Source of the DNA: Melieria omissa
Taxonomy: Eukaryota > Arthropoda > Insecta > Diptera > Ulidiidae
DNA: 64,000 bases
NCBI GenBank assembly: GCA_963971225.1
Contig: OZ020270.1
Location: forward strand, 18,029,817 to 18,093,816
Reading direction: 5' to 3'
Shown here: one piece after another, positions 9,221-64,000 of the stretch
How positions within the stretch are numbered: the first letter of the stretch is position 1
Layout of the letters: each line of letters begins with the position of its first letter
Program-made: the position numbers and the translations under genes
The notes under the pieces: model-generated
What the model was told of the DNA's origin: nothing
The model's database searches: none
What the model saw: the letters and a program-made list of their open reading frames with translations, nothing else

Positions 9221-9486
9221 TGTAGGAAAAACACGTGCGCACGGTTTATTATTTCAAAACAATTTATTTATTGTTCCTTTGGTTACACAAATGTATTATA
9301 ATTTAATTACAATAGGTGGAAATTGGCTGGCACTTAGCGGTGCTTACACTTGGCGATCACGGCAACAACTGCCGCGCTTTTGTATGGACGTTTCCGTTTG
9401 TCTTGTTCGTTTTGGTGTTGCCACCTCTTTCTTTATTTAACTCTCTCCTTTCTCCTTTCTAGGCACTTCCTAATCCCCTTCCCACA
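9221..9486 (-). repeat. LTR 2 of gypsy array (266 bp)
   Basis: Same TGT...ACA termini and sequence as the LTR at 3392-3657. It is shared by two neighbouring units, so a single LTR separates two complete internal regions. Confidence 0.88.
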
Positions 9487-9522
9487 ACCGGCCGTCCTGA
9501 CCTATTATTCGACCCCGAATAA

Positions 9523-12500
9523 CTAGACCCAACGTTTCATATTTTCGGCTACTGTTGTGGTTCTGTTTTGTCCTTCCGTGTTTCCCACTTTCTGTACCTC
9601 ATATCTCCCGTGCTGTAACTTTGCTGTTACCTTATATGGTCCAAGATATTTCGGTCTCAATTTCATGGCCGTCCCCAACTGAGTCTTTTTAATCGCTACT
9701 AAGTCATTTAAGTTATAATCGATTTCTATTTTTCTATTTTTGTTAAAAGTCTTACAGTTTTCATTTTGTATTTTTCTTATATTTTCTTGGGCATTTTCTC
9801 TTGCTTCATTTCTTTCGGTGTTTAATTCGTCTACCTCTAAGTCATTCAAAATATTTCGTAAGTCTGGGAAATCTGCTATACGCATGTCTAGTCCTGTAAG
9901 GATTTTGAAAGGTGTTGTTTTCGTGCTTCGGGGTGCAGTGTTATTTATAACTTGTTGCACTTTTGGCACGTGTTTATACCATTGGGCCGCGTTACCCTGA
10001 CACCTTTTTGCAAGCATTGGAATAACCGTTTTGTGGACGCGCTCCACCTGTCCATTGCCGCGAGGTACCCCTGTTGCAATCAGCAAGTGTTGGACGTTTT
10101 CGCGATTGCAATACTCCTTGAAAGCGTTTGATGTAAACGCCACCCCTCTGTCTGATACGATCCGTCTTGGGTTCCCAAAGATTGTCGCCTGTTTTTCTAA
10201 CTTATCGATAACTTCCTCCACCCCCGTAGACTTCGTTGGGTATAGCCAAACGAATTTTGAAAATCCATCTACTATCACGAGAATGTGGTTATACCTTTTG
10301 CGCGTTTCTGTTAACGGCCCAACGTGGTCGATGTGGTACGTCCCTAAGGGTTCGGAGGCTTTATCGATTGGCGTCAATAACCCTTCCTTTTTCCCTCTTT
10401 TCGCGTCTATTATGATGCATTCGACGCAACTTTTAACCGCATTACCCACTTTTTCTTTCAAGTTTGGTATGTAATAATTTTTCTCTACTAGCTCCTGAGT
10501 TTTTTTGACCGCGTAATGCCCCTGATTATGTGCCAATTTTATTATTTCATTTTCCATTGCAGCGGGTACTACCAACAGCTCCTTGATGGGGTCGTAATAC
10601 ACCAATTCATTCCTCAAAAAAAAATTTTCGTAATCCCCGGATTTAAGGATTGTCCTTATTGCTCTTACCCAGTCGTCCTGTATTTGCGCTTCTCTAAGCC
10701 TAAATTTTAGCGAATCTTCAGCTAGAAGGCAATACACGCGACTCAAGGCATCCACGTGCTTCATGCGAGAACCTGCTCTGTGCTCTACCACATAGTTGTA
10801 TTCTTGTAGATACATTGCCCACCTCATGATTCTATCTGGTACGTCTTGTTTCTTTACTGTCATTGCAAAAGCATTGCAATCACTCACGATTTTGAACTTG
10901 ATGTCTTTCAGGTAAATTCGCCATTTTTTTAGTGCCTTTACTACGGCTAATACCTCGAGTTCGTACGCGCTATACCGTTCTTCAGCTGGTGTGGTCTTAC
11001 GACTCATGAACTCGACTGGGTGTAGCAATCGGTCTTCCGAGTCTCTTTGCAACAAAACTGCACCATACCCATGTTTTGAGGCATCCGCGTGTACTTCTGT
11101 CTCCGCTATTGGGTTAAACAATTTAAGGGCGGGTGTATTCACTAACGCGTGCTTTAACTCTTCAATTGCCAACAACTGTTCCTCGCTCAATCTAAACTTT
11201 TCGTCCTTTCTCAACAAATCTGACAGTGGTTTAGCGACTACTGCGTAATTTGGCACGAAACGTCTAAAGAATGACGTTAACCCCAAAAATCGTTGTACTT
11301 CCTTCCTATTTGTGGGTATAGGAAAGTTTTTAACGGCCTTTGTTTTCTCTTCTGATGGCAAAATGTTCCCGTTTTCAATAATGTACCCCAAGAAACTAAT
11401 TTGCCTTTTCAGAAACTGGCACTTCTCCCACCTGATTTGCAGTCCACATTCACTCGCGCGCTCAAGGACTATCTGTAATTTTCGGAGACCTTCAGTTTCA
11501 TCCTTAGCGGGAATGACGATGTCGTCCATGTATACAATTACGGTACCATCCTTAAGTAAATCTTGAAAAATCGCGTGAATATATCGGCAAAACACTGCCG
11601 GTGAATTTGTAACCCCAAATGGTACAAAACAAAATTCATATTGGCCACTGTGGGTCACAAACGCAGTGTACTTTCGAGAATTGTGTTCAATCGGGACATG
11701 GAAAAACCCATTTTTAAGATCAAGTGTGGTAAAGACCTTTGCACCCTGCAACTTGTCTAACACTTCATCCACCAAAGTCATTGGAAAGTTATCCCTCACG
11801 ATTTTCTCGTTAACTTTGCGAAAATCGCAACAAAATCGTTTGGTCCCATTCTTCTTCGTCGTCAGTACGACCGGAGACGCGTACTCCGATGTACTCTCCT
11901 GAATTATGCCATCGCCCAGCATAATGGCCACCTGTTCATCTATATAGCGTTGGTCAGCGTACGATACGCGACGAGGGCGCTGATAAACGGGCCGGTCATC
12001 TGATAAAACGAGCTTCATTTGTATCGGCGAAACCTTTGGTTTCTCTGGCTTGTACGCGGCTATCAGTGCCTCTACAATTTCTGCTTCGCATTTCTCTAAG
12101 TGTGCCAAATCATTGTTCTCAGATTCCTTTTCTAACCCCGATTCTGCGGCCAACCACAATTGTGCAAATTCCTCCTTCAGGCCATTTTCACTCTCAGCTG
12201 CCATAAGGTTTGCCTCTACTACTCTTGCTGCGTCGGCACTTTCTCTAGCGTTTCCCCCGTGGACTGACGGCACAGCTCCACCTGACGCACGTTCCCGTAA
12301 AACCTCACCGGGGCTTGACTCAACCACTTCCATATCTCTGTTCCCGAAACCATTGAAGCCTGACACAACCGCTTTACTACCAACCTTCACAACATCTTTT
12401 TGGACTGGCACAACCACTCCAGCACCACACTTTGCAATCTCGCTACCCCAAGCAGATTCCTCGCTTACCGTGCCCCTCTCGGCTACGGCCTTCTCAACCA

Positions 12501-13830
12501 CCGCATTCTTTGGTTTTCGAAACTCAACGCTCCCTTGCCTAAAGACTAACTCCACGTCCTTAAGAACGTCATTACCAATCATCGCAGCATACGGTATGTC
12601 TCTTTCCTTTACGATGTGAAAGGTTATCCTTAACACCACCTCGTCAATGGCTATTTCGGCCTCGAAGCTGCCTAATGTCGTAAGCTTGCCTCTACCTACT
12701 CCAACCAATTGACGCTTTTCCTGACTGAGTTCTATATCGCCTAGCGACATGAGGGTATCGTATCTCATCAAGCATGTATCGGCTCCGGTATCCACTAGAG
12801 CACTAAAAGTAAAACCGCTAATCGTCACGTCGATGAAAATCATACCGCCATCTTTCTCACCTTTATATCGATGGGCCAACGTATTTACCCGTTCCTTTTT
12901 TACTGACTCATTTGTCACCTCTTTTTTACATTCACGCGCAAAATGACCTTTTTGTTTGCACTTAAAACAAATAACGTTGTCTGAACCTGCATTTGGACAC
13001 TCCTTGGCCAAATGGCCTTCGCTGTCGCATTTAAAACACTTTCTTTTCTGCTGGGTTTTCTTGCCTGAGTTCCTATCTGAGAATACCTGAGCTACGTTCG
13101 ACTTATTTGACGATACTTGTGAACCTCTTATTTTTTCATACACGCGTATCTGCTCTTTCAGTTCCTTAACGCTCTTGGCCTGATACAACATGCTTTTATT
13201 CGCTCGGGTATCGGGTAGTCCCTCTATGAAATATTCCAAAACGCTTTTTTCGTCCAATGCGATAGCTTTTCCCATCTCTATTATGGCGTATAAGTATTCC
13301 TGAAAACTTTCTTTTGTACTTTTTCGCCTGTTTCTTAATGCTCTGTGCACCTCTGAGGCACATAGCTTTTCCCCGAATTCCTCGACCAGCGCCTGCTTTA
13401 GATTACCCCATCCTTTAACGCCTACCATACCGCGAACAAAAAGCTTAGCGGCCCCTTTTAGCAACTGTTTGGCGTACACGTACCTTTGTAAGTCATTCCA
13501 GCCCACCGTGTCAGCTACGTCATCAAACTCCGCGGCCCAGCGGTTCACGTCTTGATCACTGTCCCCCGAAAATGACGAAACACCATCTTCCACATCTCGC
13601 AACGTAAACATCACCTTAAGTGCCCCAGCTAGATTTGTTGTTGCGTCCGCGTACAATGAATTTGACGACTCATTGTCACTTTCTAGTTCTTCCTGATCGT
13701 TTTCACCAACCATATGCTGTAACAAACGCAATTGTAATTCCTTTTTCCTCCCAGTTACACTTAAGTTAAGCTCCCTCAGCTTATCCTTCAGCATCTCTAC
13801 CGTCATTGCCCTAATCGTGTCAACGTCCAT
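9523..13830 (-). CDS. Gag-Pol polyprotein of Ty3/gypsy element (copy 3, intact, 1435 aa)
   Basis: Same domain order as the copy at 3694-8001: SAP-like N-terminus, Gag with two CCHC knuckles, protease (LVDTGAD), reverse transcriptase (VYMDD), RNase H, and integrase with HHCC and DDE motifs. The only amino-acid difference seen is Phe for Tyr just after the protease active-site region. It has no stop or frameshift. With copy 2 it forms two complete coding units separated by one LTR, and the near identity means duplication was very recent or the copies are homogenised. Confidence 0.93.
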   Translation of the reverse strand: MDVDTIRAMTVEMLKDKLRELNLSVTGRKKELQLRLLQHMVGENDQEELESDNESSNSLYADATTNLAGALKVMFTLRDVEDGVSSFSGDSDQDVNRWAAEFDDVADTVGWNDLQRYVYAKQLLKGAAKLFVRGMVGVKGWGNLKQALVEEFGEKLCASEVHRALRNRRKSTKESFQEYLYAIIEMGKAIALDEKSVLEYFIEGLPDTRANKSMLYQAKSVKELKEQIRVYEKIRGSQVSSNKSNVAQVFSDRNSGKKTQQKRKCFKCDSEGHLAKECPNAGSDNVICFKCKQKGHFARECKKEVTNESVKKERVNTLAHRYKGEKDGGMIFIDVTISGFTFSALVDTGADTCLMRYDTLMSLGDIELSQEKRQLVGVGRGKLTTLGSFEAEIAIDEVVLRITFHIVKERDIPYAAMIGNDVLKDVELVFRQGSVEFRKPKNAVVEKAVAERGTVSEESAWGSEIAKCGAGVVVPVQKDVVKVGSKAVVSGFNGFGNRDMEVVESSPGEVLRERASGGAVPSVHGGNARESADAARVVEANLMAAESENGLKEEFAQLWLAAESGLEKESENNDLAHLEKCEAEIVEALIAAYKPEKPKVSPIQMKLVLSDDRPVYQRPRRVSYADQRYIDEQVAIMLGDGIIQESTSEYASPVVLTTKKNGTKRFCCDFRKVNEKIVRDNFPMTLVDEVLDKLQGAKVFTTLDLKNGFFHVPIEHNSRKYTAFVTHSGQYEFCFVPFGVTNSPAVFCRYIHAIFQDLLKDGTVIVYMDDIVIPAKDETEGLRKLQIVLERASECGLQIRWEKCQFLKRQISFLGYIIENGNILPSEEKTKAVKNFPIPTNRKEVQRFLGLTSFFRRFVPNYAVVAKPLSDLLRKDEKFRLSEEQLLAIEELKHALVNTPALKLFNPIAETEVHADASKHGYGAVLLQRDSEDRLLHPVEFMSRKTTPAEERYSAYELEVLAVVKALKKWRIYLKDIKFKIVSDCNAFAMTVKKQDVPDRIMRWAMYLQEYNYVVEHRAGSRMKHVDALSRVYCLLAEDSLKFRLREAQIQDDWVRAIRTILKSGDYENFFLRNELVYYDPIKELLVVPAAMENEIIKLAHNQGHYAVKKTQELVEKNYYIPNLKEKVGNAVKSCVECIIIDAKRGKKEGLLTPIDKASEPLGTYHIDHVGPLTETRKRYNHILVIVDGFSKFVWLYPTKSTGVEEVIDKLEKQATIFGNPRRIVSDRGVAFTSNAFKEYCNRENVQHLLIATGVPRGNGQVERVHKTVIPMLAKRCQGNAAQWYKHVPKVQQVINNTAPRSTKTTPFKILTGLDMRIADFPDLRNILNDLEVDELNTERNEARENAQENIRKIQNENCKTFNKNRKIEIDYNLNDLVAIKKTQLGTAMKLRPKYLGPYKVTAKLQHGRYEVQKVGNTEGQNRTTTVAENMKRWV

Positions 13831-15049
13831 CTCCCAAATTTTAAGATTTATAATTCAAATGCCAGGATATAAAAATCAAATTACAATATCAAGATCAAAT
13901 TACAGAGTTGAAACTTAACCACTTTAATTTTCACATAAATTTGTAAGCCATTCCCTTCACTGCAATGCAAACCAAAATACAAACTAAGAACTTATACATA
14001 TAAATATGTGTCGCTCACGCTCCTTTTCGTTGCTGTTTTCTCTGCTGTTAGCTTCGCTGTCGCTTTCGCAACTGCGCTGCTCTTTCCTCCCCGTTCACGC
14101 TGCTTCGCTTTCCTAGGCTGTTGACCGTTTGCTGTACTCTGATTGGCTCTCCTCTACGTATGCCTTCGCCTTTTTACCGCGTACTCTCGGCGTCGCGTTG
14201 CTTGTCGCCTTTCCTTTGGTGTTGTTGTTGTTTTGTGTTTTTATCGCGCACTCTCGGCGTCGCGTTGCTTGTCGCCTTTTCTTTGGTGTTGTTGTTGTTT
14301 TGTGTTTTTATCGCGCACTCTCGGCGTCGCGTTGCTTGTCGCTTTTTGGTGTTGTTGTTGCTTTGTGTTTTTATCGCGCACTCTCGGTGTCGCGGTGCTT
14401 GTCGCTTTTTGGTGTTGTTGTTGCTTTGAGTTTTGATCGCGTACTCTCGGCGTCGCGGTGCTTGTCGCTTTTTGGTGTTGTTGTTGCTTTGTCTTTGCGC
14501 GTGCGCACGCTCAGATCCTTCTAGATGAAATTCACAAGTAACGGTAACTTTTCCGCTTAAAAAGTACCGGTTCTTTTTTCCTGCGCGACTGTACACGTCC
14601 CGCGGAGCACCCTAACAACAACACAATCACTGCGCAATTTTGCTGTTTCGCACCAGCTTTCGGCTGTATGTCCAGCGGAGCACCCGACAGCACTAACGCC
14701 GCGCGATTTTGTTGTTTCGCACCAGCTTTCGGCTGTATGTCCAGCGGAGCACCCGACAACACTAACGCCGCGCGATTTTGTTGTTTCGCACCAGCTTTCG
14801 GCTGTATGTCCAGCGGAGCACCCGACAACACTAACGCCGCGCGATTTTGTTGTTTCGCACCAGATTTCGGCAGTATGTCCAGCGGAGCACCCGACAACAC
14901 TAACGCCGCGCGATTTTGCTGTCTCGCACTGAATGCAAAACTGTTTTTTTTTCCCAGAATTGGCGCGCCTGTACAGTTTTTTGCGCGCAATCGTCACTCA
15001 AGTTTTTTGTTTTCCTTTTATTTTTTAATTCCCGGACGAGTCCCCAATT
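13831..15049 (-). other. 5' leader of gypsy-array unit 3
   Basis: Same leader with both tandem-repeat blocks. It differs from the other two at one position near 14944 (T instead of G before a T-run). No gene is seen. Confidence 0.75.
15029..15046 (-). promoter_or_regulatory. Primer-binding site, tRNA-Pro type
   Basis: Third copy of the primer-binding site, next to the outermost 5' LTR. Confidence 0.7.
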
Positions 15050-15315
15050 TGTAGGAAAAACACGTGCGCACGGTTTATTATTTCAAAACAATTTATTTAT
15101 TGTTCCTTTGGTTACACAAATGTATTATAATTTAATTACAATAGGTGGAAATTGGCTGGCACTTAGCGGTGCTTACACTTGGCGATCACGGCAACAACTG
15201 CCGCGCTTTTGTATGGACGTTTCCGTTTGTCTTGTTCGTTTTGGTGTTGCCACCTCTTTCTTTATTTAACTCTCTCCTTTCTCCTTTCTAGGCACTTCCT
15301 AATCCCCTTCCCACA
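15050..15315 (-). repeat. Outer 5' LTR of gypsy array
   Basis: TGT...ACA LTR whose outer end directly meets Dong LINE sequence at 15316, giving a true insertion junction. The Dong copy at 41630-41650 shows the uninterrupted target. The duplicated target bases cannot be confirmed because the other flank is outside the window. Confidence 0.88.
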
Positions 15316-28821: not shown

Positions 28822-29931
28822 GATAAATACGTTTGTTTTATATAATGTTTATATGCGTTTTATTTATTCTTCTTTTATTATATTGGACAAGATTCCACTC
28901 ACCAGCTTTCCGTTTTCCTTTCTTTTTATCTTCCTTGTATTAAGTAGTGGTCCACTCACAGCAGGATCAGTTGCAGCATTCCTGCATTACATAAAAAAAA
29001 GAAATCAATTAGTAATTTGACCCGGAAGGATCGCGTTGTCCCGTTTAGTCGACGGCGTTTATATTTGCCACCAACCTACTAGGGCGCGATTGACTTCACG
29101 CCCGCTTGGATGACCGTCTACGGCCTCCTATTAAGGAAACCCATTTTCACACGGGCTGCCGCCAGGTACATCCTCACGGTAATATTTGGCCTATTTTAAC
29201 AGCACGAGGGCGACAATTTGATAACCATCTGCGATAGTTAAAGAAGGTCGTTGATAATACGACTTATCGCCAGGAATATCATCGCCGCCCTAATGCAACC
29301 ACTTAATTTTTCCTAAAATTCACCACAAGGGGTGAAGTGATTCTGCACTTGACCACCGCGAGGCTCTGCGAGGCACCTTCACTCTTTCACTCAAATCCAA
29401 TTCAAAAAAATATTGGGGTTTCATTAACTTATTTTTGTAATGTGTGCGTGGTGATAATCCGTTCCATTATTTCCCAGTGGGAATTCAATTCTTGTTAAGT
29501 TTTAATGCCTTCCGGGCGCAGTTTTTTACAGATTGGAGGGTCCGGAGTTCGGAATCGCAGTCTGCTGCCAACTTCTTCGAAGAAGGCATATTCTCCCATA
29601 GGCAGTTATGAAAATGTTATTTGTAGCCTGAGGGTCTTCGGGGTCACAGGCTTTTTCTTTCGTTAGATCCTGGAGGGTCCGGAGTTCGGAATCGCAGGAT
29701 GAGGACGTATTTCTTTAAATCGTTATTATTTTAACCACATCACCACTCCGCACATTTTTCAATACATTTTTTCGTGCAGGAGGGTCCCCCGAAGGTAGGA
29801 ATCGCTGGCACGTACTTCAATTTCTCACATTTACACTTTTGCACGATCACTTTCTCCTTGGTACCTCGCAGAACCTTTTTATGTTTCTCCTTTGGGCACC
29901 CGCCTTTTAGACGGGTCCCTGCTCGGGCGCC
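28822..29931 (-). other. 5' leader of errantivirus A with conserved hairpins
   Basis: Noncoding. Class I hairpins (stem around CGATTCC...GGACCCTC) lie at 29529-29564, 29667-29700 and 29774-29811; a class II hairpin (TAGTAGGT...GACTAAACGGG) lies at 29040-29085. Both families recur in the leaders of elements B and C. No gene is seen. Confidence 0.8.
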
Positions 29932-29932
29932 A
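29915..29932 (-). promoter_or_regulatory. Primer-binding site, tRNA-Lys type
   Basis: TGGCGCCCGAGCAGGGAC on the minus strand, overlapping the last base of the LTR. It differs by one base from the tRNA-Lys3 site of lentiviruses, as remembered. The same site is used by elements B and C. Confidence 0.85.
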
Positions 29933-30276
29933 GTTAGCGTCGCCTTAAGGGCGACACTTAAAAAAATTAAAATTGTGGACCATCCACGGGTCCTTGGAAT
30001 AAATACACACCAATTATAATTTCACAATCAAATTATTTAATTAGAACAAGTTTGAAGAGTACTGCTCTCGACGGCGGCCAAATACAGAATGAATCCCTAT
30101 TCTATTTACATTAAAGTCCTAACCTAAGCTTAACTACAAAGATGCTGCTGCATCGCCGTTCCCACGCTGCACAGGTGTTCGCTGATCGCTTCCAGCGAAT
30201 CTGCATGCGCCGTCAGCACTTCTGCACTGCGCGCATGCTGTCTGGTTGCAGCTGTTGCTACTGGGCTGTGCTAACT
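29932..30276 (-). repeat. 5' LTR of errantivirus A
   Basis: 345 bp, AGTTAGC...CTAACT on either strand. It is flanked by TAA repeats on the right and the primer-binding site on the left. Confidence 0.93.
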
Positions 30277-49557: not shown

Positions 49558-52039
<2,482 letters not shown>

Positions 52040-52040
<1 letters not shown>

Positions 52041-52057
52041 GGCGCCCGAGCAGGGAC
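52040..52057 (+). promoter_or_regulatory. Primer-binding site, tRNA-Lys type
   Basis: TGGCGCCCGAGCAGGGAC, identical to the sites of errantiviruses A and C. Confidence 0.87.
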
Positions 52058-52871
52058 CTGACTGCGATTCCTACGGGACCCTCCAGTCAGGCTTGTAATT
52101 TCAAGTATAACAAACCAATCAATCCTGCGATTCCTACGGGACCCTCCAGGATATAACAATTATGCCGACTGCGACTCCTACGGGACCCTCCAGTCAGGTT
52201 AAACAATTGAATATGTAAATATATAAAAATTAAGAAACTGATCGACCCTGCGATTCCTACGGGACCCTCCAGGGTATAACCACCTGCTGGCTGAGATCCT
52301 GTAAATCAGGCCCTCCAGCTTATGTACGGATCCTTGGTCATGGTTAGACGACAGGTCATTCCGCTTAGCGGAGAATCATTACGGCCAGGATACTGTACGG
52401 TGGAGTTAGTCGTGCCATTAGTAGGTCGCTGACAAGCATAAACGTCAGCTTCCAAACGGGGCAACCACGACGCTCCCGAAGCAGTAAATCAGTAACAAAG
52501 GAACGTCGCTCGGGTGGACGCCAGGCCAACTAGCTCCAATCTTGTTTTTGCTAAAATTGCGGTGGAAAAAATAAAAAGAAAACCTACAACAAAAGAAAAA
52601 AAAAAAAAAATTTCAAAAATAAAAGTGAAAAAGAACCACGTATAGTTGCCGATACAAATTGCAGAAGAACTTACAAGATTTTGAAATAAAAGTGCAAGGT
52701 CGAAGGTGAAAAAGATCGAGAACTCAAAATATCTTCTCGAAAAAAAAAAAGCAGTGCAAAAATTTAAGAAAAAAACCTACATCAAGAACAAAGGTGCACG
52801 GACGAGGTAGAAGGGATCGAAGAAGAAGGCGCAAGGATTGCTGAAATCGACAAGACGTAGACGTAGCAAGG
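52041..52871 (+). other. 5' leader of element B with conserved hairpins
   Basis: Class I hairpins lie at 52057-52091, 52122-52152, 52167-52195 and 52245-52275, with a degenerate fifth near 52286-52320. Each has the loop CGATTCCTACGGGACCCTC (one C variant), and stems differ but stay complementary. A class II hairpin lies at 52418-52460. The remainder up to the ATG is A-rich. No gene is seen. Confidence 0.85.
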
Positions 52872-53678
52872 ATGGAAGATTTGAGTAAAGCAGTGACAGA
52901 ACTGACGGGGGCGGTGAATGCGCTCCTCGAGCAAATTCGCGGGCTCGAGCCCCGGCTAGGCGTAGATACCGCAAAGAAATCGCGTTATCAAGCAAATACT
53001 GTAAGTGTACCTACGGTTGACAAAAATAAAAACCGCTCTTCCCATTCCCAGATGCGCAAAATAGTCCAACCAACGTTTGCAACGAAAACATTTAGTTATA
53101 AGCGAGGTGATAACAAAATACTGGGACTGATAGGCGTTGAGTATGTAATCAAAATGCTTAAAGGCTCTGGTGACTTAAATGCGAGGTTTGAGTGTGGGTT
53201 ATGCGAACTTATGTCGGATGGGTCTGGTATGCAAGATCACTTGATGGGCTACAATCACCGTCTGAAATTTTGCGAAAACCACTTTCCGACTGCCATACGG
53301 CAATGCCGACAATATATCGGAAAAATTCCTGAAGAGGATGCTCAGAGAGTTATGTTACAAATTTTGAAAAAATTGGCTGTCGCTATAGAGAAACATCATG
53401 GCCGAGATTTGCCGTATGAATGCATGGAGCATGATTTTAATATCAATCGTTACGAGATTCTTTCAAAAATATTTTCAGTTCGTCATGCCTCTGAACTATA
53501 TGGCCCTACTTTTACTCATATAGTAAATTCAAGAGACGTTGATCAGTTAGTCGCAACAAGGCATAACCTTGTTCCCCCGAAATCTTCGAATAAGGCAGGT
53601 GACAGGGTTTACGTGAGAGATAAACAGAAAAAAGAAAATAAGCAAAAATATATATTTCCTCTCAGGCGCAATAAATAA
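52872..53678 (+). CDS. Gag-N / zinc-finger protein / Pol-tail fusion (268 aa), putative captured cellular gene
   Basis: Residues 1-30 (MEDLSKAVTELTGAVNALLE ...) match the Gag start of errantivirus C (MDSLAQSVTELTGSVNALLG). From about residue 61 to 240 the sequence is unlike any Gag or Pol part: FECGLCELMSDGSGM...H...H forms a C2H2 finger (C108, C111, H123, H129; C-X2-C-X11-H-X5-H) after an ILGLIGVEYVIKML stretch, and a helical region follows. Residues 241-258 (AGDRVYVRDKQKKENK) resemble the Pol C-terminus (VFVADKQIKGKHKK). Residues 44-60 coincide with a 51-nt intron-like segment, and residue 61 is a Met. The original gene was not identified. The finger type suggests nucleic-acid binding (inference). 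Confidence 0.8.
   Translation: MEDLSKAVTELTGAVNALLEQIRGLEPRLGVDTAKKSRYQANTVSVPTVDKNKNRSSHSQMRKIVQPTFATKTFSYKRGDNKILGLIGVEYVIKMLKGSGDLNARFECGLCELMSDGSGMQDHLMGYNHRLKFCENHFPTAIRQCRQYIGKIPEEDAQRVMLQILKKLAVAIEKHHGRDLPYECMEHDFNINRYEILSKIFSVRHASELYGPTFTHIVNSRDVDQLVATRHNLVPPKSSNKAGDRVYVRDKQKKENKQKYIFPLRRNK
53001..53051 (+). other. 51-nt intron-like segment inside the fusion ORF
   Basis: It begins GTAAGT and ends TTCCCATTCCCAG after an A-rich middle. The length is divisible by three, there is no stop, and it is in phase 0 (residues 44-60), so the ORF is open whether or not it is spliced. The acceptor region resembles 57716-57750 in the leader of errantivirus C (AATAAAAACCGCT shared). Confidence 0.5.
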
Positions 53679-53770
53679 AAAAGAAAATAAGCAAAAATAT
53701 ATCTTTCATCTCAGGCGCAATAAATAAAAAAGAAAATAAGCAAAAATACATATTTCCTCTCAGGCGCCCT
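53632..53770 (+). repeat. Three 49-bp tandem repeats, each ending in a splice-acceptor-like sequence
   Basis: Units begin at 53632, 53681 and 53730 (AAGAAAATAAGCAAAAATA...). Each carries TTTCCTCTCAG or TTTCATCTCAG followed by GCGC, at 53665, 53714 and 53763. The stop codon of the fusion ORF lies in the first unit. Confidence 0.75.
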
Positions 53771-53779
53771 GTGAACCCT

Positions 53780-53905
53780 AGGAATTCTTTAGTAATATGG
53801 ACGATATCCACAAGAGCCACATTAAAAACATAGACCAAACAACCAAAAATTCCAAAGGTAACAGAAGTAGTCAGGGCAACAGGGGGGGTTCACAGGAAAA
53901 ATAAA
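53780..53905 (+). pseudogene. pol: Remnant of Pol C-terminus
   Basis: A short frame contains DIHKSHIKN (near 53799-53826), the same ending as Pol of errantiviruses A (KIHKSHIRN) and C (RIHKSHIKN), and continues with a Ser/Asn/Gly-rich tail to a TAA near 53903. This shows that the 3' boundary of the replaced region lies inside the last ~60 codons of pol. Confidence 0.72.
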
Positions 53906-54501
53906 AAGAAAAAAAAAGAGATAAAAAAAAAAAAACACAAAAAAAAAAAAAAAAAACAAAAAAAAAAAAAAAAAAGCAAAAAACACAAATAAAAAACACG
54001 AAGAGAGGAAAGAACACAAAAGACAAATAAAAAAAAAAACACAAATAAAAAACACGAAGAGAGGAAAGAACACAAAAGAGAAATAAAAAAACACAAATAA
54101 AAAACACGAAGAGAGGAAAAAAACACCAAACATAAAAAGCAAAAAACACAAGGAAAAGACACAAAGAAAACAAGAGAAACGAATTGGCCCGAAGAAGCAA
54201 CAGAGAAAAGAAAAAACACACTATTCAAAAAAAAAAAAGAGGAAAAAATACATAAAGCCCAAATTAACAAAAACGGAAAAACACTTTTTACCAATAAAAA
54301 TAAAGGATAAATGTAATATAATATATATAATACAATACATCTACTAGGAGAAAAATTTTGATTGATTTCTAAATTAGCCTTAAGAATCCTTATGTAAACA
54401 ATTGTCAATTTACCCTTAAGAGTATGATAATAACAAACAGAATTAATGGTAATGGTCTAGTAGTAGTAACAGTAATAGAAATTCAACTCTGTAATCAATA
54501 A

Positions 54502-54551
<50 letters not shown>

Positions 54552-54997
54552 GTTATATTATAATCCGGCAACCCTTATTAACTACTACTATTTCTAACTA
54601 TTACTATTAATATTACTACTACAAATACTATAATAATTATAACAACATGTATAACAACTAAGTTTAACCAACTACTAATACTAATGTAACTACTGCTTAG
54701 AGAAGAAAATGAAAATTGTAAGGAGTTCAGTTCGAAAATAAAGATTGTTGAAACAGCATCGAACCTATTTTATAATTATATATATATATATATTAGCATA
54801 TATTAGCAATTACGGAAAATTACAACCTAGAAGCCACTACATAATACAGAAATCAATCAAAATCAAATCAAACAAAAGAAATTGCATACGAATAAGCAAA
54901 TGAGATGTCCTAGAACAAGGAAGAAGTCCACTCAAATGAATGGAACAATTTTTAGCAAGTAGTACAACATGTTTTAGCAAGTACAACATGTTTCAGA
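53906..54997 (+). other. A-rich pol-env spacer of element B; no gene
   Basis: Purine-rich low-complexity DNA with repeated ACACGAAGAGAGGAAA units (about 53983-54125), a long A-run with (TA)n at 54506-54551, and AT-rich sequence up to env. Hydrophobic reading frames on the other strand are by-products of the A-richness. Confidence 0.7.
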
Positions 54998-55656
54998 ATG
55001 ATTACGATGGCTATGACGACGGTACGCGGCCTACACGTGTTCGAGTATAAGTCTCCAATCGTCACCATGAAGGAGGGCAACGCTCGGATTCTGAATGGGA
55101 ACTTCAACCTGGTACACGTCATGAACATACAACAATACGAAGAGTTGGTGGGAGAAATAAAAGAAGCTGTCAAGGATGTTGAAGTGACCGAAAGGAAGAC
55201 ACACTGTTTCTCAGCAACTTTTTTGGCCCCGCCACGTCGGGAAACTACTCGAGAAATCTTAATGGAACCTACATCATCCAGATCCAGAACGAGTCGGTGC
55301 TAATAAAGGACAAGCTCTTTTCAACCCGATCGTATGTGAAAACTCAAATAATGCCCCCGATCCTCTCAAATATCACGAAAAGTATCCCCAAGATAGACGT
55401 AAGCTATTTGCACCAGCTAAGCCTGAAGAACATCGACAGACTCCAGGATCTGCAGGTTAAATCAAATGTTTCATTAGCCACCGACATAATTATCGTCACT
55501 ATAATAATTCTTTGCTCGCTGATAATATGGAAATATCTTACGAGGAATCTCCACATCCCTCGCATATACCCCATAATCGAGCACACGGCATCCCCCGCTA
55601 AACCACCACGCCTAACATCACTTAATCTGCGGGACGCAGATATTTTAAGGGGGAGG

Positions 55657-55662
<6 letters not shown>
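54998..55662 (+). pseudogene. env: Env of element B, internally deleted
   Basis: The first ~65 codons (from the ATG at 54998) match the N-terminus of the other two Env proteins, with a hydrophobic leader. Around 55195 the frame changes and the sequence continues as the C-terminal third of Env, including sequons, a membrane segment (TDIIIVTIIILCSLIIWKYL) and a cytoplasmic tail that runs into the 3' LTR start. The furin site and the central part are absent, roughly 250 codons. It cannot be a functional fusion protein; whether the C-terminal frame (55297-55662) is expressed is unknown. Confidence 0.8.
55625..55656 (+). promoter_or_regulatory. Polypurine tract with upstream hairpin
   Basis: The hairpin ATCTGC-GGGAC-GCAGAT (55625-55641) is followed by AAGGGGGAGG directly before the LTR. 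This is the primer for plus-strand DNA. The hairpin is conserved with errantivirus A. Confidence 0.75.
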
Positions 55663-56925
<1,263 letters not shown>

Positions 56926-56926
<1 letters not shown>

Positions 56927-56943
56927 GGCGCCCGAGCAGGGAC
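56926..56943 (+). promoter_or_regulatory. Primer-binding site, tRNA-Lys type
   Basis: TGGCGCCCGAGCAGGGAC, as in A and B. Confidence 0.87.
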
Positions 56944-58239
56944 CCGCGCAAAAATGCGGGTCGACGCGTGAAGGACTCAGGGCGAAGCAACCGCTTCGAA
57001 AAATAACAGTAAGTTTAAAATAGGAAAACGTAAAAGAAAACAAGATAAAGAAATACGTCTTCATCCTGCGATTCCTACGGGACCCTCCAGGATATAACAA
57101 ATACCAAAAGTGCTGCGACCCCGAAGCCCCTCAGCCTTTCATAAAAATTATTTGGGAACTGCCAGCGATTCACCACCTTCGGGGGGACCCTCCTGTGCAG
57201 TAAAAAATAAAAAGTGTACCACGATTCGCCAACTCCAGGGAATACTCCCGTACACTCGGCATATCCCCAAATATAAATTTATCAAAACCGGCGATCCAAA
57301 TGCTTGGATCTTTCGGTAACATAACACTGTGAAGAAAAAGTCCTGAGTTCCTAACGCCAACGAATTGTAAAGGATCGGCCTTATCCCACCTCACACCTTG
57401 TGCGTTCGCTTAAAAGTCGGAGTATATCCTCTGGACAAGTCGAGCGCCGAACGGTGATGAGCGGATAGGTGGAAGACACCGTGCCTTAGTAGGTCGGCTG
57501 CAATTATAAACGCGGTCGACTAAAAAGGATAACACGTGAAGCCAGTCGCTCCTTAGTAGGTTGCCCGCAATCAAATTGCGGACGACTAAAACGGATAAAG
57601 TGACCCTTCCGCGACGAAAATTGTCAAAAGCCGTTCCCTTCAGAACACGGTGAAACGAAGTTTAAAGGCAGACGCCGTTGAGCGCGAGCCGCCGTTAACG
57701 TAAGATCACGGTACACATAAATAAAAACCGCTTCCTTACTTTCAGATAAACAGAGAATAAGCACCGAACGAAAGGTGCCAGAGGATTATGGATTGTGGAA
57801 AATAAAACAAAAAAAAAAACAAAATTGTGTTAATGATTTAAAAGTGCTAGAAAACAAAAAATTGATAGGAAAAGTGCCAGAAAACAAAAAATTGATAGGA
57901 AAAGTGCCAGAAAATAAGGAAAAAAGTTGCTAATATATAAATAATAAGAAGTGTCAAACAATTTTTCCTTGGTGAAAAAGAGAAATCATAAGAATTCATA
58001 AGAATTCCTTGGTAGTTCAAAGAAACATAAAAAAAAAGAGATAAATATAAATAAAAAGATAAATGGTAAAAAAATTCTAAAATTGTAAAAATTTTTTGTT
58101 TTTTAAATTGTAAAAAAAAAGGAAGAAAATAAGAAGTGTGAAAGTGCCACCCGAAAGGTTCGAAAGGTGCTGAAAGGAAGGAGTACGAGAACATATAGAG
58201 GTGAGTCCTTGAACTGTTTGGTGTATTTGATTGGTGAAA
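56944..58239 (+). other. 5' leader of errantivirus C with conserved hairpins
   Basis: Class I hairpins: 57063-57093 and 57158-57201. Class II hairpins: 57485-57530 and 57551-57594. A possible short intron (GTAAGATC...CTTTCAG, about 57704-57749) and a 30-bp tandem repeat (57841-57920, two and a half units) are also present. No gene is seen. Confidence 0.82.
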
Positions 58240-59436
58240 ATGGATTCCTTAGCGCAATCAGTGACTGAATTAACTGGTTCAGTGAATGCCCTACTGGGCC
58301 AGTTGAGAGCGGCCGAAAGCCGTATCCGGCAACTCGAACAATCGTTCGCCCCAACCGCGGGAACGCCCGGGGAGGAACCGTTGTGTGGTCCTTCATCGGA
58401 GAGTGACTTGAGGGAAATCGAAAGACTGCCAGATTCAGTGAAGGAACTGCAGACTTTCGAGGGGAACCCGGCGCAATATGTGTCCTGGGTCCACTGTGTG
58501 GAAGGAATTTTAGGGGACTATAAAATAGTTAGGGGAAAACCTTTGTACAGGGCGATCCTTAAAAGCATTAGAGGAAAAATTAGGGGTAGTGCCGACACGG
58601 CACTCGTTTCTTATAATATTTTTGATGACGATTGGCCGGCTATTAAAAAATGTCTCTCGCTGCATTATGCTGACAAGAGAGACATTAGGACTTTAGAACA
58701 CCAACTAGGTCGACTCACACAGGGGGGAACGAAACTGGATGTATTTTACGCGAACGTAAATCACCAGTTCTCGCTAATAATAAATAAACTAAAAACAGAG
58801 GACTACTCTCCTGAGACATTGAATGCATTGGTAGAAACATATAGAAACAGGGCCCTAGACGTTTTCATCAGAGGATTTGACGATGATCTGTCAAAAATGA
58901 TCATCGTGCAGAAGCCCAGTACTCTGCCCGAAGCCTACACAGCATGTCTCGACATACAAAATTTAAACTTTCTTGGTCACTCTATACATAACACGAATGT
59001 GCGTAATTCCATAACAGTGCCCATCAACCACTCAAACCGTAGGGACAATCCCCCTCCTCTAATACCTAGGAGGTTCAACAATTTCACGCCAGGCGGGGGA
59101 AGTGGAAGATTCAATCCAGGAGCGCGAAGCTATTCCAAGGACAATCGGTACGTCTACACGAAAAATAACGTGCCAGGTCCTGCTGTGAAGATGGAAGTAG
59201 AACCCTCAACTCAAACGCGAATGACCAGCTACTCGCAAAAACCGCAACAGCAATTCCCCTCTAAAAGAAGTATTGGCTCAGACAATTTTCCTCAAAAACA
59301 ACAACGAATTTTCAATATTGAAACGGCTGAAGAAAGTCGGGGAGAACTCGATGGGGGAACCCGTGAAGGTCCAGAGATGAGCGAAAAGGACCAAATAGAT
59401 TTTACGAGAGGAGCCTATCCAGCGTTCCTTATATAG
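58240..59436 (+). CDS. gag: Gag of errantivirus C (398 aa)
   Basis: The ATG at 58240 starts MDSLAQSVTELTGSVNALLG, followed by a coiled coil and the capsid-like region (FEGNPAQYVSWVHCVEGIL, LSLHYADKRDIRTLEHQL, YRNRALDVFIRGFDDDLSKM). The C-terminal third is Arg/Pro/Gln-rich with no CCHC knuckle and ends GAYPAFLI. About half of the residues appear shared with Gag of A. The pol frame overlaps the end by a -1 shift. No defects were seen. Confidence 0.93.
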   Translation: MDSLAQSVTELTGSVNALLGQLRAAESRIRQLEQSFAPTAGTPGEEPLCGPSSESDLREIERLPDSVKELQTFEGNPAQYVSWVHCVEGILGDYKIVRGKPLYRAILKSIRGKIRGSADTALVSYNIFDDDWPAIKKCLSLHYADKRDIRTLEHQLGRLTQGGTKLDVFYANVNHQFSLIINKLKTEDYSPETLNALVETYRNRALDVFIRGFDDDLSKMIIVQKPSTLPEAYTACLDIQNLNFLGHSIHNTNVRNSITVPINHSNRRDNPPPLIPRRFNNFTPGGGSGRFNPGARSYSKDNRYVYTKNNVPGPAVKMEVEPSTQTRMTSYSQKPQQQFPSKRSIGSDNFPQKQQRIFNIETAEESRGELDGGTREGPEMSEKDQIDFTRGAYPAFLI

Positions 59437-62400
59437 AATACGTTAACAGCGAAGGCTCATTGCTGAAATTCCTTGTGGATACCGGAGCCAATAAACATTT
59501 TATTAGACCATTTCTTTCAAAAACCACCACTAAACTTGAGAAACGTTTTTCCGTTCAATCTGCTGGAGGCGGTATCCCGATCTCCGAGGAGGTGAAGGGA
59601 AGATTTTTCCACCAACTAGGGAACAATACTCTGATGACTTTTTACGTCCTGCCAGGACTCAAATCTTTTGACGGAATTATCGGCGACGATAGCTTGAAGG
59701 AGCTAGAAGCCGTGATTGACAGAAAACAAACTTTACTGATATTAAAACCAAACATTAAAATTCCACTACTAGAAAAAGCCTCGGAACAAGTGAACGCAGT
59801 ACTCGAGGAACGTCTATCAAGAAATGCAAAGGAAAAGTTGCACCGGATTATTGAAGAACACAACTCCCTTTTCGGGCCAATAAGTAATAGGGAAATTGTA
59901 GGCACGACAGTTAGGGCCGAAATTAAAACTACCACGGACGAACCTATCTACACGAAGAGTTATCCATATCCCGCATATATGAGGGCCGAGGTGGAACGAC
60001 AAGTACAGGAACTCCTGGATGAAGGCATCATCCAACCATCAAAAAGCCCGTACAACTCTCCTGTTTGGGTGGTGCCGACAAAGCCGAAGTCAAACGGAGA
60101 GAAACAGTACCGAATGGTAATCGATTTCAAGCGATTGAAAGCTGTTACCATTCCTGATACGTACCCTATCCCGGACATCAACTCTACTCTCGCCAGCTTG
60201 AGCAAGGCCAAATTTTTCACGACTCTGGATCTGACTTCTGGTTTCCACCAAATACCCATGAAACCATCGGACGTTCCCAAGACAGCATTTTCCACTATGA
60301 ATGGGAAATACGAGTTCCTGCGACTACCCTTCGGCCTGAGAAACGCGCCCGCGATATTTCAAAGAATGATTGATGACGTGCTTAAGGAATTTATTGGCAA
60401 AATTTGTTACGTATACATTGATGACATCATTGTATACGGCGCAGACGAGGACGATCATATCAAAAATATAGAAGCAATCTTCTCTAGACTCAGCGAAGCT
60501 AATCTGAAGGTGAATCTCGACAAGACCCATTTTATGAGGGATGAGGTTGAGTTCCTTGGCTATGTTGTTACTGCCAACGGCATCAGAGCTGACGAAAAAA
60601 AGGTAGCCGCGATTCAAAACATTCCTCCGCCGGAAAATCTTAAAGAGTTGAAGAGCTTCCTTGGGATGACTTCTTATTATAGGAAGTTCATCCGCGATTA
60701 CGCGAAGATAGCTAAACCCTTAACGAACCTAGCTAGGGGTGAAAATGCACAGGTTAAAGCAAATGCTTCCAAACGCATTCCAATCACACTCGACGCGGAG
60801 GCTCTGGGAGCTTTCAATGAGTTAAAAAGGTCGTTAGTTTCATCTGACCTATTAGCATTTCCAGACTTTGAGAAACTATTTAACATAACAACCGATGCGT
60901 CCGATTACGCAATAGGAGCGGTTCTGTCCCAGGGGGAAAATGGGAATGACAAACCCATCTCGTATATATCACGATCGCTAAACAAAACCGAAGAAAACTA
61001 CGCGACCAACGAAAAGGAGATGCTTGCGATTGTGTGGGCCCTGGACAACCTGCGATCCTACGTCTACGGTGCGAAGAAAATCCGTATCTACACGGACCAC
61101 CAACCTCTGACTTTCGCACTAGGAAACAGGAATCACAACGCTAAATTGAAAAGGTGGAAGGCGAGGATTGAAGAGTACAACCACGAATTAATTTACACTC
61201 CAGGTAAATCGAATGTAGTGGCCGACGCTCTTTCTCGACTCAAAACAAATTTATACCTTCTCACGAACTCCGAAACCGATACTGCCAGTGAGGGTAATCC
61301 TGAAACCGATACTGCCAGTGAGGGTAATCCTGAAACCGACACCGCTAGCGAGGGCAACACCGAAACTATAACGGCAAGCGAAGCCAACACTACAGGCGCG
61401 ACCGCCCACAGCGCCGATCGTGACGCAACCGACTTAATTCCCCACGTGGAAGTTCCACTGAACGTCTTTAGGAACCAAATTGTGTTTAGGTCGGGCAGGG
61501 AACTGCATTGCTTAGAGAACCCACATCCAGGCTACACTCGTCACTATGTAACCATAACCGAAATAAATGAAGAAAACCTAGTTGACATACTAAAAAGATT
61601 ACTTAATCCAGGAGTGATCAATGGCATAAAAATGCCCGAATCCCGGCTACAACTCTTACAGGACGTTTTTTCGCGACATTTTTCGAAATACAAGATAAGA
61701 ATCACACAAAGGTTGGTGGAAGATGTAGCGAATGAAGAAAGGAAGTGCCGAGTGATAGAAGAAGCACACCGCAGAGCACATAGAGGCCCTCGCGAAAATA
61801 CACAACAAATTTTAGAAAAGTACTATTTCCCGCGTATGACTAGTCTGGTTAAACAGTATACGTCCGGATGTCAGACTTGCAAATTACAAAAATACGACCG
61901 TCATCCGCCTAAACCTAAATACCAAGCCACCCCAACACCATCATACCCTTGCGAAATCCTTCACATAGACATTTTTGAAATAGAAAGGGAAAAGTTTCTG
62001 AGCTGCGTGGACAAATTTTCCAAATTTGCTAAGCTTTTCCATATTAGAAATAGATCAAGTGTACACCTACGTGAGAAATTGGCCAAGGTCATACACTTTT
62101 TCACTGCCCCAAAAATTATAGTAACAGACAACGAGCGAGGCTTTCTAAGCCCAACCGTGTCAAACTTTATCACGTCGCTCGGTATTGAGCTATACAAAAC
62201 ACCAGTCCAAAAAAGCGAGGTTAACGGCCAAGTCGAGAGATTACACTCGACGTTGTTGGAAATGTACCGATGTCTGAGAACTGAGCTTCAACAGTACAGG
62301 GTAAAAGAATTACTGTATATAGCAGTAGACCGCTATAACAACTCTGTGCACTCCATTACTAAAAAAAACCGAGTGACATATTTTTTAACAGAACATCTAG

Positions 62401-62686
62401 AATAAATTATCAGAATTTGACAAACTTCAGGGACACAGTCTATGACAATATTAAGGCCCAAATAGAAAATAACCAGGAAATTAGGAACCTAAGATCAAAT
62501 AGGAACAGGCAGGAACCAAAGAAATTTGATATAGGTGGGAAAGTGTTCGTTGCTGACAAGCAAATCAAAGGAAAACACAAAAAACGCTATAAACAAGAGG
62601 TTGTAGCCCGCGACAACAAAGTAACAGTAATTACCAGATCAGGCAAAAGGATCCATAAAAGCCACATCAAGAACACTAGACACTAA
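59413..62686 (+). pseudogene. pol: Pol of errantivirus C, one frameshift near the C-terminus
   Basis: Protease: FLVDTGANKHFI (about 59470) with a full-length flap region. RT: LPFGLRNAPAIFQRMIDD and YVYIDDIIVYG. RNase H: ITTDASDYAIGAVLSQ. A linker of 12-residue acidic repeats (ETDTASEGNP, 61267-61390) precedes integrase, which has an HHCC finger (EAHRRAHRGPRE...CQTCK) and DDE residues (HIDIFEIE, VTDNERG, EVNGQVERLH). Around 62361-62368 an A-run is one base short relative to the homologue, shifting the frame; a stop follows at 62405, and the true C-terminus (VFVADKQIKGKHKKRY ... RIHKSHIKN) continues at 62417-62686. A sequencing error in the run could also explain it. Confidence 0.9.
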
Positions 62687-63060
62687 GGATTCAGAAGAAT
62701 TTTTAAAGAGGAAATTATAAACAGCAAAAAAGAGCATAAATAAGATTTTATGAATAAGATTTTATGAAAAAAAAGCAATAAATAAAAAAAGGAAAACCAA
62801 TGCGGAATATATACAGGAAATTTAAATAGAATGGTGATGGGAGTAAGAAATAAAAAAAAAAAAAAAAAAAAAAAAAATTTTTCAACAAAAAATAAAACAA
62901 AACAAATAAAAAAGAATAGAGAATTACAAAAACTTTTAAGAAAAATGGCACAAAAAATATGTATATGTAAAACATACGGCACCCTTTAAATTGTATGAAT
63001 AAATATAATTACAGGCACACATATACACAAGAAAATTTAAGACATATAAAATAGGTAAAA
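62687..63060 (+). other. pol-env spacer of errantivirus C; no gene
   Basis: A/T-rich, with an A-run at 62850-62877. A CAG-type acceptor for the spliced env mRNA is expected here, but none was clear enough to assign. Confidence 0.6.
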
Positions 63061-64000
63061 ATGCACCTTAGGTCGACATTCCACTTCATCATCACGGTAG
63101 TAATAATCTCCGGGACAATTGCACTTAACATCTTTAAGTACGACTCCCCTCTGGTGGTCATCCAACACAGCGACGGATGGATAGTGAATGGGCACTTCAA
63201 GCTGGTGCATGCTCTTGACATCGGCTTCTTCGATGCAGCTTTAAGGAAGCTCGAAATAGCCAAGTCAACCATGAGGGACGATTTATCGAAATCTCTGGTC
63301 GATTACTACCTCAAGCAGACGAGGCTACGCCTTAATGAATTACTGAGTGACGGCAACAGGATGAAACGCTCCATAACCTGGATCGGAGCGGCATGGAAGT
63401 GGGTCGCAGGCTCACCAGACGCTACTGACTGGGATGAAATCCTCCAAAAGCAAAATGAGATGGTATCAAACAACAACAACCAATACCTGATCAACAAAAA
63501 AATCTTCAACGTAACAGAGGAGGCAATCAGGAAGGTCAATGATGTCATGGCCCACATAAACACTATCGGCAAGGACATTAACTCAGAAAGATCCGACACG
63601 TTAATGTCGCACAAGGTCCTGGTGCTCAAAGAACAGATATCCGAAATCATCAGGGCTTCAAAAATGGCCAAGGCAGGTATTGTCAACACCAACCTCTTAG
63701 ATCAAGCAGAAATAGATCGAGTAATCTGTGAAGAAGACGGACTACCTTACCGAAATCTAGTAGAGGCGCTTCAGTACGCGAAACCCTCTATCTACTCGAA
63801 CGGAACTCTGCTCCTCTACGTGCTCGCCGTACCGAAAGTGAAGAAAACCCGTTATAGTCTAATGTTGGTCAGAGCCTCAACGGCGAAGGGGAAACGAGTA
63901 GATCTGCAGTACAAAAAAATGCTGATGAGCAACGACGAAACCTATGGTCTCACCGGCGATTGCTACTCATCGAACAACTCCACGATTTGTGAGGCGAGTT
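63061..64000 (+). CDS. env: Env of errantivirus C, N-terminal 313 codons (cut by window edge)
   Basis: The ATG at 63061 is followed by a hydrophobic signal peptide (FIITVVIISGTIAL). A furin-type site (RMKRS, near 63360) precedes the conserved segment with WKWVAGSPDA, as in Env of A. Heptad-like helices and sequons (NVT, NGT, NNST) follow. The frame is open to the last base of the window. It is likely translated from a spliced mRNA and acts as a membrane fusion glycoprotein, by analogy with gypsy-type Env. Confidence 0.9.
   Translation, partial: MHLRSTFHFIITVVIISGTIALNIFKYDSPLVVIQHSDGWIVNGHFKLVHALDIGFFDAALRKLEIAKSTMRDDLSKSLVDYYLKQTRLRLNELLSDGNRMKRSITWIGAAWKWVAGSPDATDWDEILQKQNEMVSNNNNQYLINKKIFNVTEEAIRKVNDVMAHINTIGKDINSERSDTLMSHKVLVLKEQISEIIRASKMAKAGIVNTNLLDQAEIDRVICEEDGLPYRNLVEALQYAKPSIYSNGTLLLYVLAVPKVKKTRYSLMLVRASTAKGKRVDLQYKKMLMSNDETYGLTGDCYSSNNSTICEAS

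What the first reader, a model, noticed from the sequence alone, without database searches (positions are those of the whole stretch)
52872..53905. Transducing insect retroelement: a zinc-finger gene has replaced gag-pol in element B
One ORF joins an errantivirus Gag N-terminus (residues 1-30), about 180 residues of a C2H2 zinc-finger protein with no retroelement signature, and a Pol C-terminal tail; the IHKSHIKN ending of Pol survives just downstream. LTRs, primer site, leader, Env ends and polypurine tract are kept. This is the layout of acute transforming vertebrate retroviruses, which I do not know from an insect endogenous retrovirus. The two LTRs look identical and TTAT flanks both ends, so this form transposed recently, presumably with proteins from a helper element.
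Basis: partly seen in the sequence, partly recalled or inferred. Interest (0 to 1): 0.93.

Follow-up and report, generated by a model that had tools for sequence, protein, structure and literature searches.

The report
Jumping elements carrying a stolen zinc-finger gene
In this fly genome several kinds of virus-like jumping elements have swapped most of their own genes for a piece of a host gene related to a nuclear RNA-surveillance protein, which suggests, but does not prove, that they use the stolen piece to blunt the host's defence against jumping elements.

Summary
Element B (51682-56015) has two identical 359-bp LTRs and a 268-aa ORF (52872-53678): Gag residues 1-30, about 206 codons of a C2H2 protein, and a short Pol-like tail. 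The C2H2 part comes from a host gene. A locus on contig C1 encodes a 1295-aa protein with the same segment (88.5% DNA, 76-78% protein identity). Its closest solved relative is Drosophila Tesup-1 (PDB 9g7l/9g7u, complexes with dZfc3h1 and Pih1d1). Homologues occur in many flies. Trees group the mobile copies tested with this host gene, as one clade.

The case is larger than reported. A capped search lists about 130 copies. At least four LTR element groups carry the piece; one derives from the Gag-Pol-Env element C of this window. The 5' break at host residue 403 recurs across groups. None of 17 carriers examined keeps the proline-rich-binding domain (host 744-862). The segment evolves under purifying selection while mobile (omega 0.41-0.48).

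Best reading: one capture, then spread among element families, kept because the protein helps the elements, most likely as a decoy of a host RNA-surveillance/TE-control factor. Capture is strong; decoy function is inference. B's own helper was not found: that search did not complete.

The parts
51682..52040 (+). 5' LTR of element B, 359 bp
   Evidence: 100% identical to 55657-56015
52041..52055 (+). primer-binding-site-like stretch GGCGCCCGAGCAGGG
   Evidence: directly after the LTR; 24-31 bp around it repeated at 56921-56944 (element C) and 29914-29944 (beside element A)
52056..52871 (+). leader with internal repeats; no ATG ORF of 80 aa or more listed
52872..52965 (+). Gag N-terminus, about residues 1-31, fused in frame to the captured segment
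   Evidence: blastx to element C Gag residues 1-60, E 2.9e-6
52966..53591 (+). captured host segment, C2H2 (Tesup-1-like) region, host residues about 403-611
   Evidence: 88.5% DNA identity to L043 4033-4650; blastx 76% over host 403-613; trees
53592..53675 (+). Pol-like C-terminal tail closing the ORF
   Evidence: motif-level resemblance to Pol ends of elements A and L053; sequence reading only
53628..53774 (+). three head-to-tail copies of a 49-bp unit (96% and 86% to the first); the ORF stop lies at the border of the first and second
53806..53829 (+). IHKSHIKN remnant of the Pol end, in another frame after the stop
   Evidence: read
54974..55129 (+). Env N-terminal remnant
   Evidence: blastx to the translated region downstream of element C Pol, 35% over 52
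55195..55560 (+). Env C-terminal remnant
   Evidence: blastx to element A Env 288-409, 38%, E 2e-24
55657..56015 (+). 3' LTR of element B, 359 bp
56536..64000 (+). element C (runs off the window): LTR 56536-56918, Gag 58240-59436, Pol 59634-62405 (frame ends early in this copy), start of Env; source of LTR, leader and Env of the carriers L046, L047 and L060
   Evidence: blastn of L046, L047, L060 to the window; Pfam RT, RNase H, integrase in the Pol frame, none in the Gag frame

Best explanation
Element B belongs to a set of non-autonomous LTR retroelements that carry a captured fragment of a host gene orthologous to Drosophila Tesup-1. SHOWN by sequence: a host fragment starting at codon 403 sits where gag-pol should be; the host gene is present, with homologues in other flies; the mobile copies tested descend from the host lineage of this species; at least four element groups with different LTRs and leaders carry the fragment; the proline-rich-binding domain is absent from every carrier examined; the fragment is under purifying selection while mobile. 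INFERRED: it was captured once (shared 5' break, one clade), passed between families by recombination of co-packaged RNAs, and moves with proteins of helper elements. INFERRED, less certain: translated from the Gag start, the protein keeps the zinc finger and neighbouring helical region but lacks the part that binds dZfc3h1/Pih1d1. It would therefore act as a dominant-negative decoy of a host nuclear RNA-surveillance factor and raise expression of the elements that encode it.
For: Host locus: 78% aa in a 1304-aa stop-to-stop frame; 88.5% nt; Tesup-1 domain, E 5.5e-53, 183 bits against 92 for the tandem paralogue and 67 for the CG7065-type paralogue; structure titles. Fly homologues. Trees: mobile clade 96.7/99, mobile plus host 99.8/99 (11 mobile representatives); DNA tree 72/79 for the mobile clade (34 distinct mobile segments). 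Several families. Breakpoints. Selection: free against omega=1 lnL -1992.56/-2006.21 (all mobile), -1194.69/-1201.43 (group iii), -1150.95/-1155.38 (B plus related). Open frames: 42 of 43 B-type rows, 65 of 68 rows at 88-96% and 18 of 21 rows at 76-81% have no stop in the matched part (my count from the listing).
Against: No expression or protein data. The link to TE control rests on the PDB entry name and partners; reading Tesup as TE suppressor is my inference, and no paper on it was found. That the C2H2 region binds targets or partners is not shown; the model of it is poor (mean pLDDT 59.6) and no solved fold matched at E 0.001. L054 has lost one zinc-ligand cysteine. Pairwise omega is not below 1 in every pair (B vs L048 95% interval 0.18-1.07; 7 of 8 bootstrapped pairs exclude 1). 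B's helper was not found.
Confidence: 0.5

Rival explanations
1. The captured protein helps the element directly and not by opposing the host: it binds element RNA or a nuclear partner and stands in for a Gag function such as RNA selection, nuclear export or packaging.
For: It is fused to the Gag N-terminus in B and, read by eye, in L062, and lies in the gag-pol interval of L047 and 5' of the integrase frame in L051; purifying selection.
Against: In L046, L047 and L060 the match to element C stops before the Gag start, so fusion to Gag is not needed. No Pfam domain was found in the B ORF or in the 455-aa ORF.
Confidence: 0.2
2. Small-RNA weapon: the captured fragment matters as nucleic acid. 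Element-derived piRNAs against the 88%-identical host message would lower host Tesup-1, as reported for W-linked PxyMasc retrocopies.
For: 618 bp at 88.5% identity to the host gene; copies in tandem arrays; precedent by title and abstract start in a search listing only (PMC9674220).
Against: Selection preserves the protein (omega below 1), and silent sites diverge (dS 0.19-0.42 from the host in 11 comparisons), which weakens pairing.
Confidence: 0.12
3. Passive passenger: a captured stretch without function, spread because these element families are active.
For: Retroelements capture host pieces by read-through; copies are young (LTR or terminal repeat pairs 99.7-100% identical in B, L047, L051, L055, L057).
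Against: Spread over at least four different element groups and an omega below 1.
Confidence: 0.13
4. Reverse direction: the host gene acquired the region from retroelements.
For: The region occurs in more element copies than host copies.
Against: Homologues with the same region in Lucilia, Glossina, tephritids and Drosophila, and two paralogues here; mobile copies nest with this species' host gene.
Confidence: 0.02

Closest known systems
Acute transforming vertebrate retroviruses (recalled)
   Same: Host gene fused to Gag N-terminus in place of gag-pol; LTRs, leader and PBS kept; defective, so helper needed.
   Different: Insect endogenous elements; a fragment shared by several element families; parent is a nuclear zinc-finger gene, not a growth-control gene; no evidence of transformation.
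Maize Bs1 and other plant LTR elements with transduced genes (PMC13317346, passages read)
   Same: LTR retroelement carrying host gene pieces in an ORF.
   Different: Bs1 carries pieces of three host genes (membrane ATPase, xylan endohydrolase, glucanase) in one element family; here one gene piece is shared across families and lacks the proline-rich-binding domain of its parent.
Errantiviruses / gypsy-type insect endogenous retroviruses
   Same: LTRs, PBS-like stretch, Gag N-terminus, Env related to Pfam Gypsy family in the sister elements.
   Different: No gag-pol in the carriers B and L047; host ORF instead.
Transposon-encoded anti-silencing factors such as plant VANC (seen only as reference titles; name and function recalled)
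   Same: Element-coded protein thought to counter host silencing.
   Different: VANC is not known to me to be a captured host defence fragment.
W-linked PxyMasc retrocopies (PMC9674220, listing and abstract start only)
   Same: Repeated copies of a host gene fragment in an insect that may act on the parent gene.
   Different: Act through small RNA; not an LTR element cargo as far as seen.

Membership tests
Errantivirus (element B as a defective member) | paired LTRs with PBS-like stretch | tested here: met
Errantivirus (element B as a defective member) | gag-pol with RT, RNase H, integrase | tested here: not met
   only Gag-N and a Pol-like tail remain
Errantivirus (element B as a defective member) | env of gypsy type | tested here: inconclusive
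   only fragments in B, by blastx to A and C; sister L047 has a 509-aa Env frame, Pfam Gypsy E 7e-50
Retroelement transducing a host gene | insert derived from a host gene that still exists in the genome | tested here: met
Retroelement transducing a host gene | insert from processed mRNA (introns lost) | tested here: inconclusive
   captured stretch lies in one open frame of the parent
Retroelement transducing a host gene | chimeric element replicates as a unit | tested here: met
   dozens of near-identical copies with the same junctions
Retroelement transducing a host gene | helper element with shared ends | tested here: inconclusive
   a Gag-Pol-Env relative is shown for L046, L047 and L060, not for B (searches unanswered)
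Tesup-1 orthologue (host gene L043) | proline-rich-binding domain | tested here: met
   E 5.5e-53, 183 bits; Foldseek E 1.6e-12
Tesup-1 (captured protein) | proline-rich-binding domain | tested here: not met
   0 of 17 query sequences (16 loci and the B stretch 52872-53905) extend past host residue 727; the other B pieces do not match the host locus; the 455-aa ORF has no PDB match to it
Defence decoy / anti-silencing factor | raises TE expression | not testable with these tools
   needs RNA or cell work

The most novel reading that the evidence does not exclude
LTR retroelements of a fly captured once a fragment of a host RNA-surveillance gene that normally restrains transposons, dropped the proline-rich-binding part that docks exosome-adaptor partners, and pass it between different element families as a shared dominant-negative anti-defence cassette; the carriers gave up gag-pol and live on helpers while supplying counter-defence.
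Probability: 0.38. Interest if true: 0.97.

Novelty: new variant of a known kind. Interest (0 to 1): 0.88.

Why it matters
Transduction of host genes by retroviruses is a classic of vertebrate virology (recalled) and is described in plant LTR elements (passages of PMC13317346). I found no report of it for insect endogenous retroviruses in the searches made (listings only). Here the cargo appears to come from a nuclear RNA-surveillance gene and is shared by several element families, which would be a direct case of transposons turning a host control factor against the host. The parent's Drosophila counterpart has solved domain structures, so the idea can be tested in a laboratory fly.

Tried and rejected
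Assembly artefact: rejected, because the same ORF and junctions recur in dozens of copies on many contigs. Host acquired the region from an element: rejected by homologues and trees. Separate captures in each family: not favoured, because a recurring 5' break and one mobile clade are seen, but a lost host duplicate as source cannot be excluded. Fold comparison of the captured region led nowhere. Searches with the captured piece of phages (two matches at E 0.8 only), IMG/VR and the protein collection (32 candidates, none at E 1) found no relative; the protein search with 200 aa could not reach long host proteins by its length rule, so it says nothing on those. Origin of two other segments of the 455-aa ORF (N-terminal about 50 aa; C-terminal about 80 aa) stayed open: no match in the window, the held loci or the held homologues outside the carriers.

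Full report
WHAT IS THERE. Element B spans 51682-56015. Its LTRs (359 bp) are identical, and a primer-binding-site-like stretch follows the 5' LTR; 24-31 bp around it recur at 56921-56944 (element C) and 29914-29944 (beside element A). The only ATG ORF of 80 aa or more on the + strand between the 5' LTR and the Env remnants is 52872-53678, 268 aa. It has no Pfam match at E 10. Gag-N (39% over 64 columns to element C Gag) and two Env remnants are recognised by blastx. The Pol tail is a motif-level reading only. The element sits in an (ATT)n tract, so the TTAT on both sides is not informative.

GENOME COPIES. The window lies in G000, 490 Mb in 164 contigs. With 52872-53905 as query, 40 of 40 scored candidates (248 found) match over the full length at 99-100%. 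With the 200-aa captured region as query, 150 of 152 candidates were scored. My count from that listing of 150 rows: 43 rows at 99-100% over at least 199 residues (one with a stop) plus one partial 99% row; 65 rows at 88-96% with no stop in the matched part; 3 rows at 93-94% with two stops; 21 rows at 76-81%, three with a stop; 3 host-type rows; 14 short or weak pieces. The tool states that counts are lower bounds.

PARENT GENE. The host-type rows are C1:46829559 (78%, 1304-aa stop-to-stop frame, L043), C1:46809557 (37%, 1118-aa frame, L044, about 20 kb away) and C2:21452851 (31%, 742-aa frame, L045). L045 is a CG7065-type protein, best match 75% to Zeugodacus. The L043 protein (P0005, 1295 aa) matches the solved domain of Drosophila Tesup-1 at residues 744-862 (E 5.5e-53, 183 bits), against 92 bits for L044 and 67 bits for L045. 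The structure titles are 'proline-rich binding domain of Tesup-1 in complex with dZfc3h1 peptide' and the same domain with a proline-rich region of Pih1d1 (model of the L043 domain, mean pLDDT 82.9). The captured region of the host protein finds 41 homologues at E 0.001; those with a named organism are flies, such as Lucilia 61% and Rhagoletis 57%. I found no paper on Tesup (most subscription papers are not held). That the name means TE suppressor is my inference, and the PAXT role of ZFC3H1 is taken from passages of the review PMC13271354 about human cells.

TREES. In a protein tree of the captured region (175 columns, 34 rows, 11 of them mobile) the mobile copies group with L043 (99.8/99) and form one clade (96.7/99). 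A DNA tree of 35 distinct segments (34 mobile and L043, from 72 sequences) plus L044 gives the mobile clade with weaker support, 72/79. The source is thus this species' lineage. One capture is the simplest reading; a lost host duplicate as source is possible.

SEVERAL ELEMENT FAMILIES. B pieces match the other carriers only in the captured segment or in short stretches. L046, L047 and L060 (455-aa ORF) share LTR, leader and Env region with window element C at 88-100% per block, while the gag-pol interval of C, about 58136-62655, is absent. L047 has identical 478-bp LTRs and a 509-aa Env frame, Pfam Gypsy E 7e-50. L053 has another Env (Pfam Gypsy E 1.8e-13 for its N-terminal part). L051 holds two copies of a group with 636-bp LTRs, an integrase frame and the captured piece 5' of it. 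A comparison of the two sides, outside the host-derived segment, of nine sequences (B, C, L047, L048, L051, L053, L054, L059, L062) gives these groups: B; C with L047; L053 with L059 (2923 bp aligned in all, main blocks 96-97%); and L051, which shares nothing with B, C, L047, L048, L053, L059 or L062. B against C and against L047 has matches of at most 39 bp; C against L053 of at most 81 bp. L047 does share longer blocks with L053 (242 and 143 bp) and L059 (398 and 339 bp) at 92-99%. The pieces compared run up to the host-derived segment and so include the flanking ends of the ORF, so a cassette larger than the host piece may have moved between these two groups (location within the pieces not checked). 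The 455-aa ORF thus occurs in two groups. L048, L054 and L062 look like further groups; L062 is a distant relative of B and C (425 and 407 bp aligned in all, longest blocks 74-82%), and L054 has only one match, 141 bp at 73%, to L051.

JUNCTIONS. blastx to the host protein puts the 5' limit at residue 403 in B, L046, L047, L053, L059 and L060; L048, L054 and L062 start at 371-399 in the alignment but, read by eye, join the host sequence at about the same place. Group iii starts at 417-431 in the alignments, by eye at a shared ATG. The 3' limit is 613-614 in B and group iii, 639 in L054, 655 in L062, 673 in L053, and 727 in L046, L047, L048, L059 and L060. Thus 0 of 17 query sequences (16 loci and B 52872-53905) reach the proline-rich-binding domain at 744-862. 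The nucleotides just before the B junction (AGATACC) agree with those in L053 and L062, which suggests that B received the segment from another carrier and not straight from the host.

SELECTION. Codon models on the captured segment give omega 0.47-0.48 for all mobile rows, 0.41-0.42 for group iii and 0.46-0.48 for B plus related groups. Forcing omega to 1 costs 13.6, 6.7 and 4.4 log units. Codon bootstraps of pairwise NG86 values exclude 1 in 7 of 8 pairs; B vs L048 does not (0.18-1.07). Recombination between elements can disturb these values. Of 35 distinct segments, 2 contain a stop. The C2H2 ligands (my assignment) are kept in 13 of 14 aligned sequences, L054 having lost one cysteine.

HOW IT MOST LIKELY WORKS. 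Shown: capture, loss of gag-pol in B and in the element-C-derived carriers, presence in several families, selection on the protein. Inferred: movement by helper proteins; element C or its kin could serve the L047 group, while B's helper is unknown. Inferred, less certain: the truncated protein keeps the zinc finger and its neighbourhood but not the part that docks dZfc3h1/Pih1d1, a layout expected of a dominant-negative decoy. The main rivals are a Gag-like role in cis and small-RNA targeting of the host gene.

COMPARISON. It works like acute transforming retroviruses in layout (recalled) and like maize Bs1 (passages of PMC13317346). It differs in host, in sharing one cargo among families, and in the nature of the cargo. 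I know of no insect endogenous retrovirus with this layout, and my searches of open-access papers found none; subscription papers are mostly not held, and only listings were seen for those searches.

LIMITS. The captured region's fold is not reliable. The element groups were delimited on single loci, and most copies were not read.

Noticed in passing
5' flanks of 30 B-type loci L013-L042: Of 30 loci, 20 showed the LTR start by my pattern; 7 of these follow another copy head to tail through a shared LTR. Of the other 13, 12 abut a perfect trinucleotide ATT-type tract of 37 bp or more, in both orientations, and one (L034) lies next to an imperfect one. This points to a preference for (ATT)n targets, not compared with the genome background.
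   Followed up: partly
G000 C4:18.23-18.24 Mb, C31:80-84 kb, C4:4.44 Mb: Tandem arrays of B with about 3.8-4.0 kb spacing, as expected from LTR-LTR recombination.
   Followed up: partly
L046 1568-2932 (minus): The 455-aa ORF has an N-terminal stretch of about 50 aa and a C-terminal stretch of about 80 aa that match neither the host gene nor window elements; possibly a second captured gene.
   Followed up: partly
L053 about 3432-3463: A TTTA-type repeat reads as FIYLFIYLFI inside the captured ORF and keeps the frame open.
   Followed up: no
window 2502-15054: Three units spaced 5829 bp repeat the same ORFs, two with a 1435-aa Gag-Pol-like frame on the minus strand, nearly identical: a tandem retroelement array.
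   Followed up: no
window 59634-62405: Pol frame of element C ends before the Pol C-terminus seen in element A, so this copy may itself be defective.
   Followed up: no
window 53628-53774: A 49-bp unit repeated three times across the ORF stop; L001-L008 show the same self-matches there.
   Followed up: partly
L043 and L044: Tesup-1-like gene and a strongly diverged paralogue lie about 20 kb apart, with a CG7065-type paralogue on another chromosome-scale contig.
   Followed up: partly
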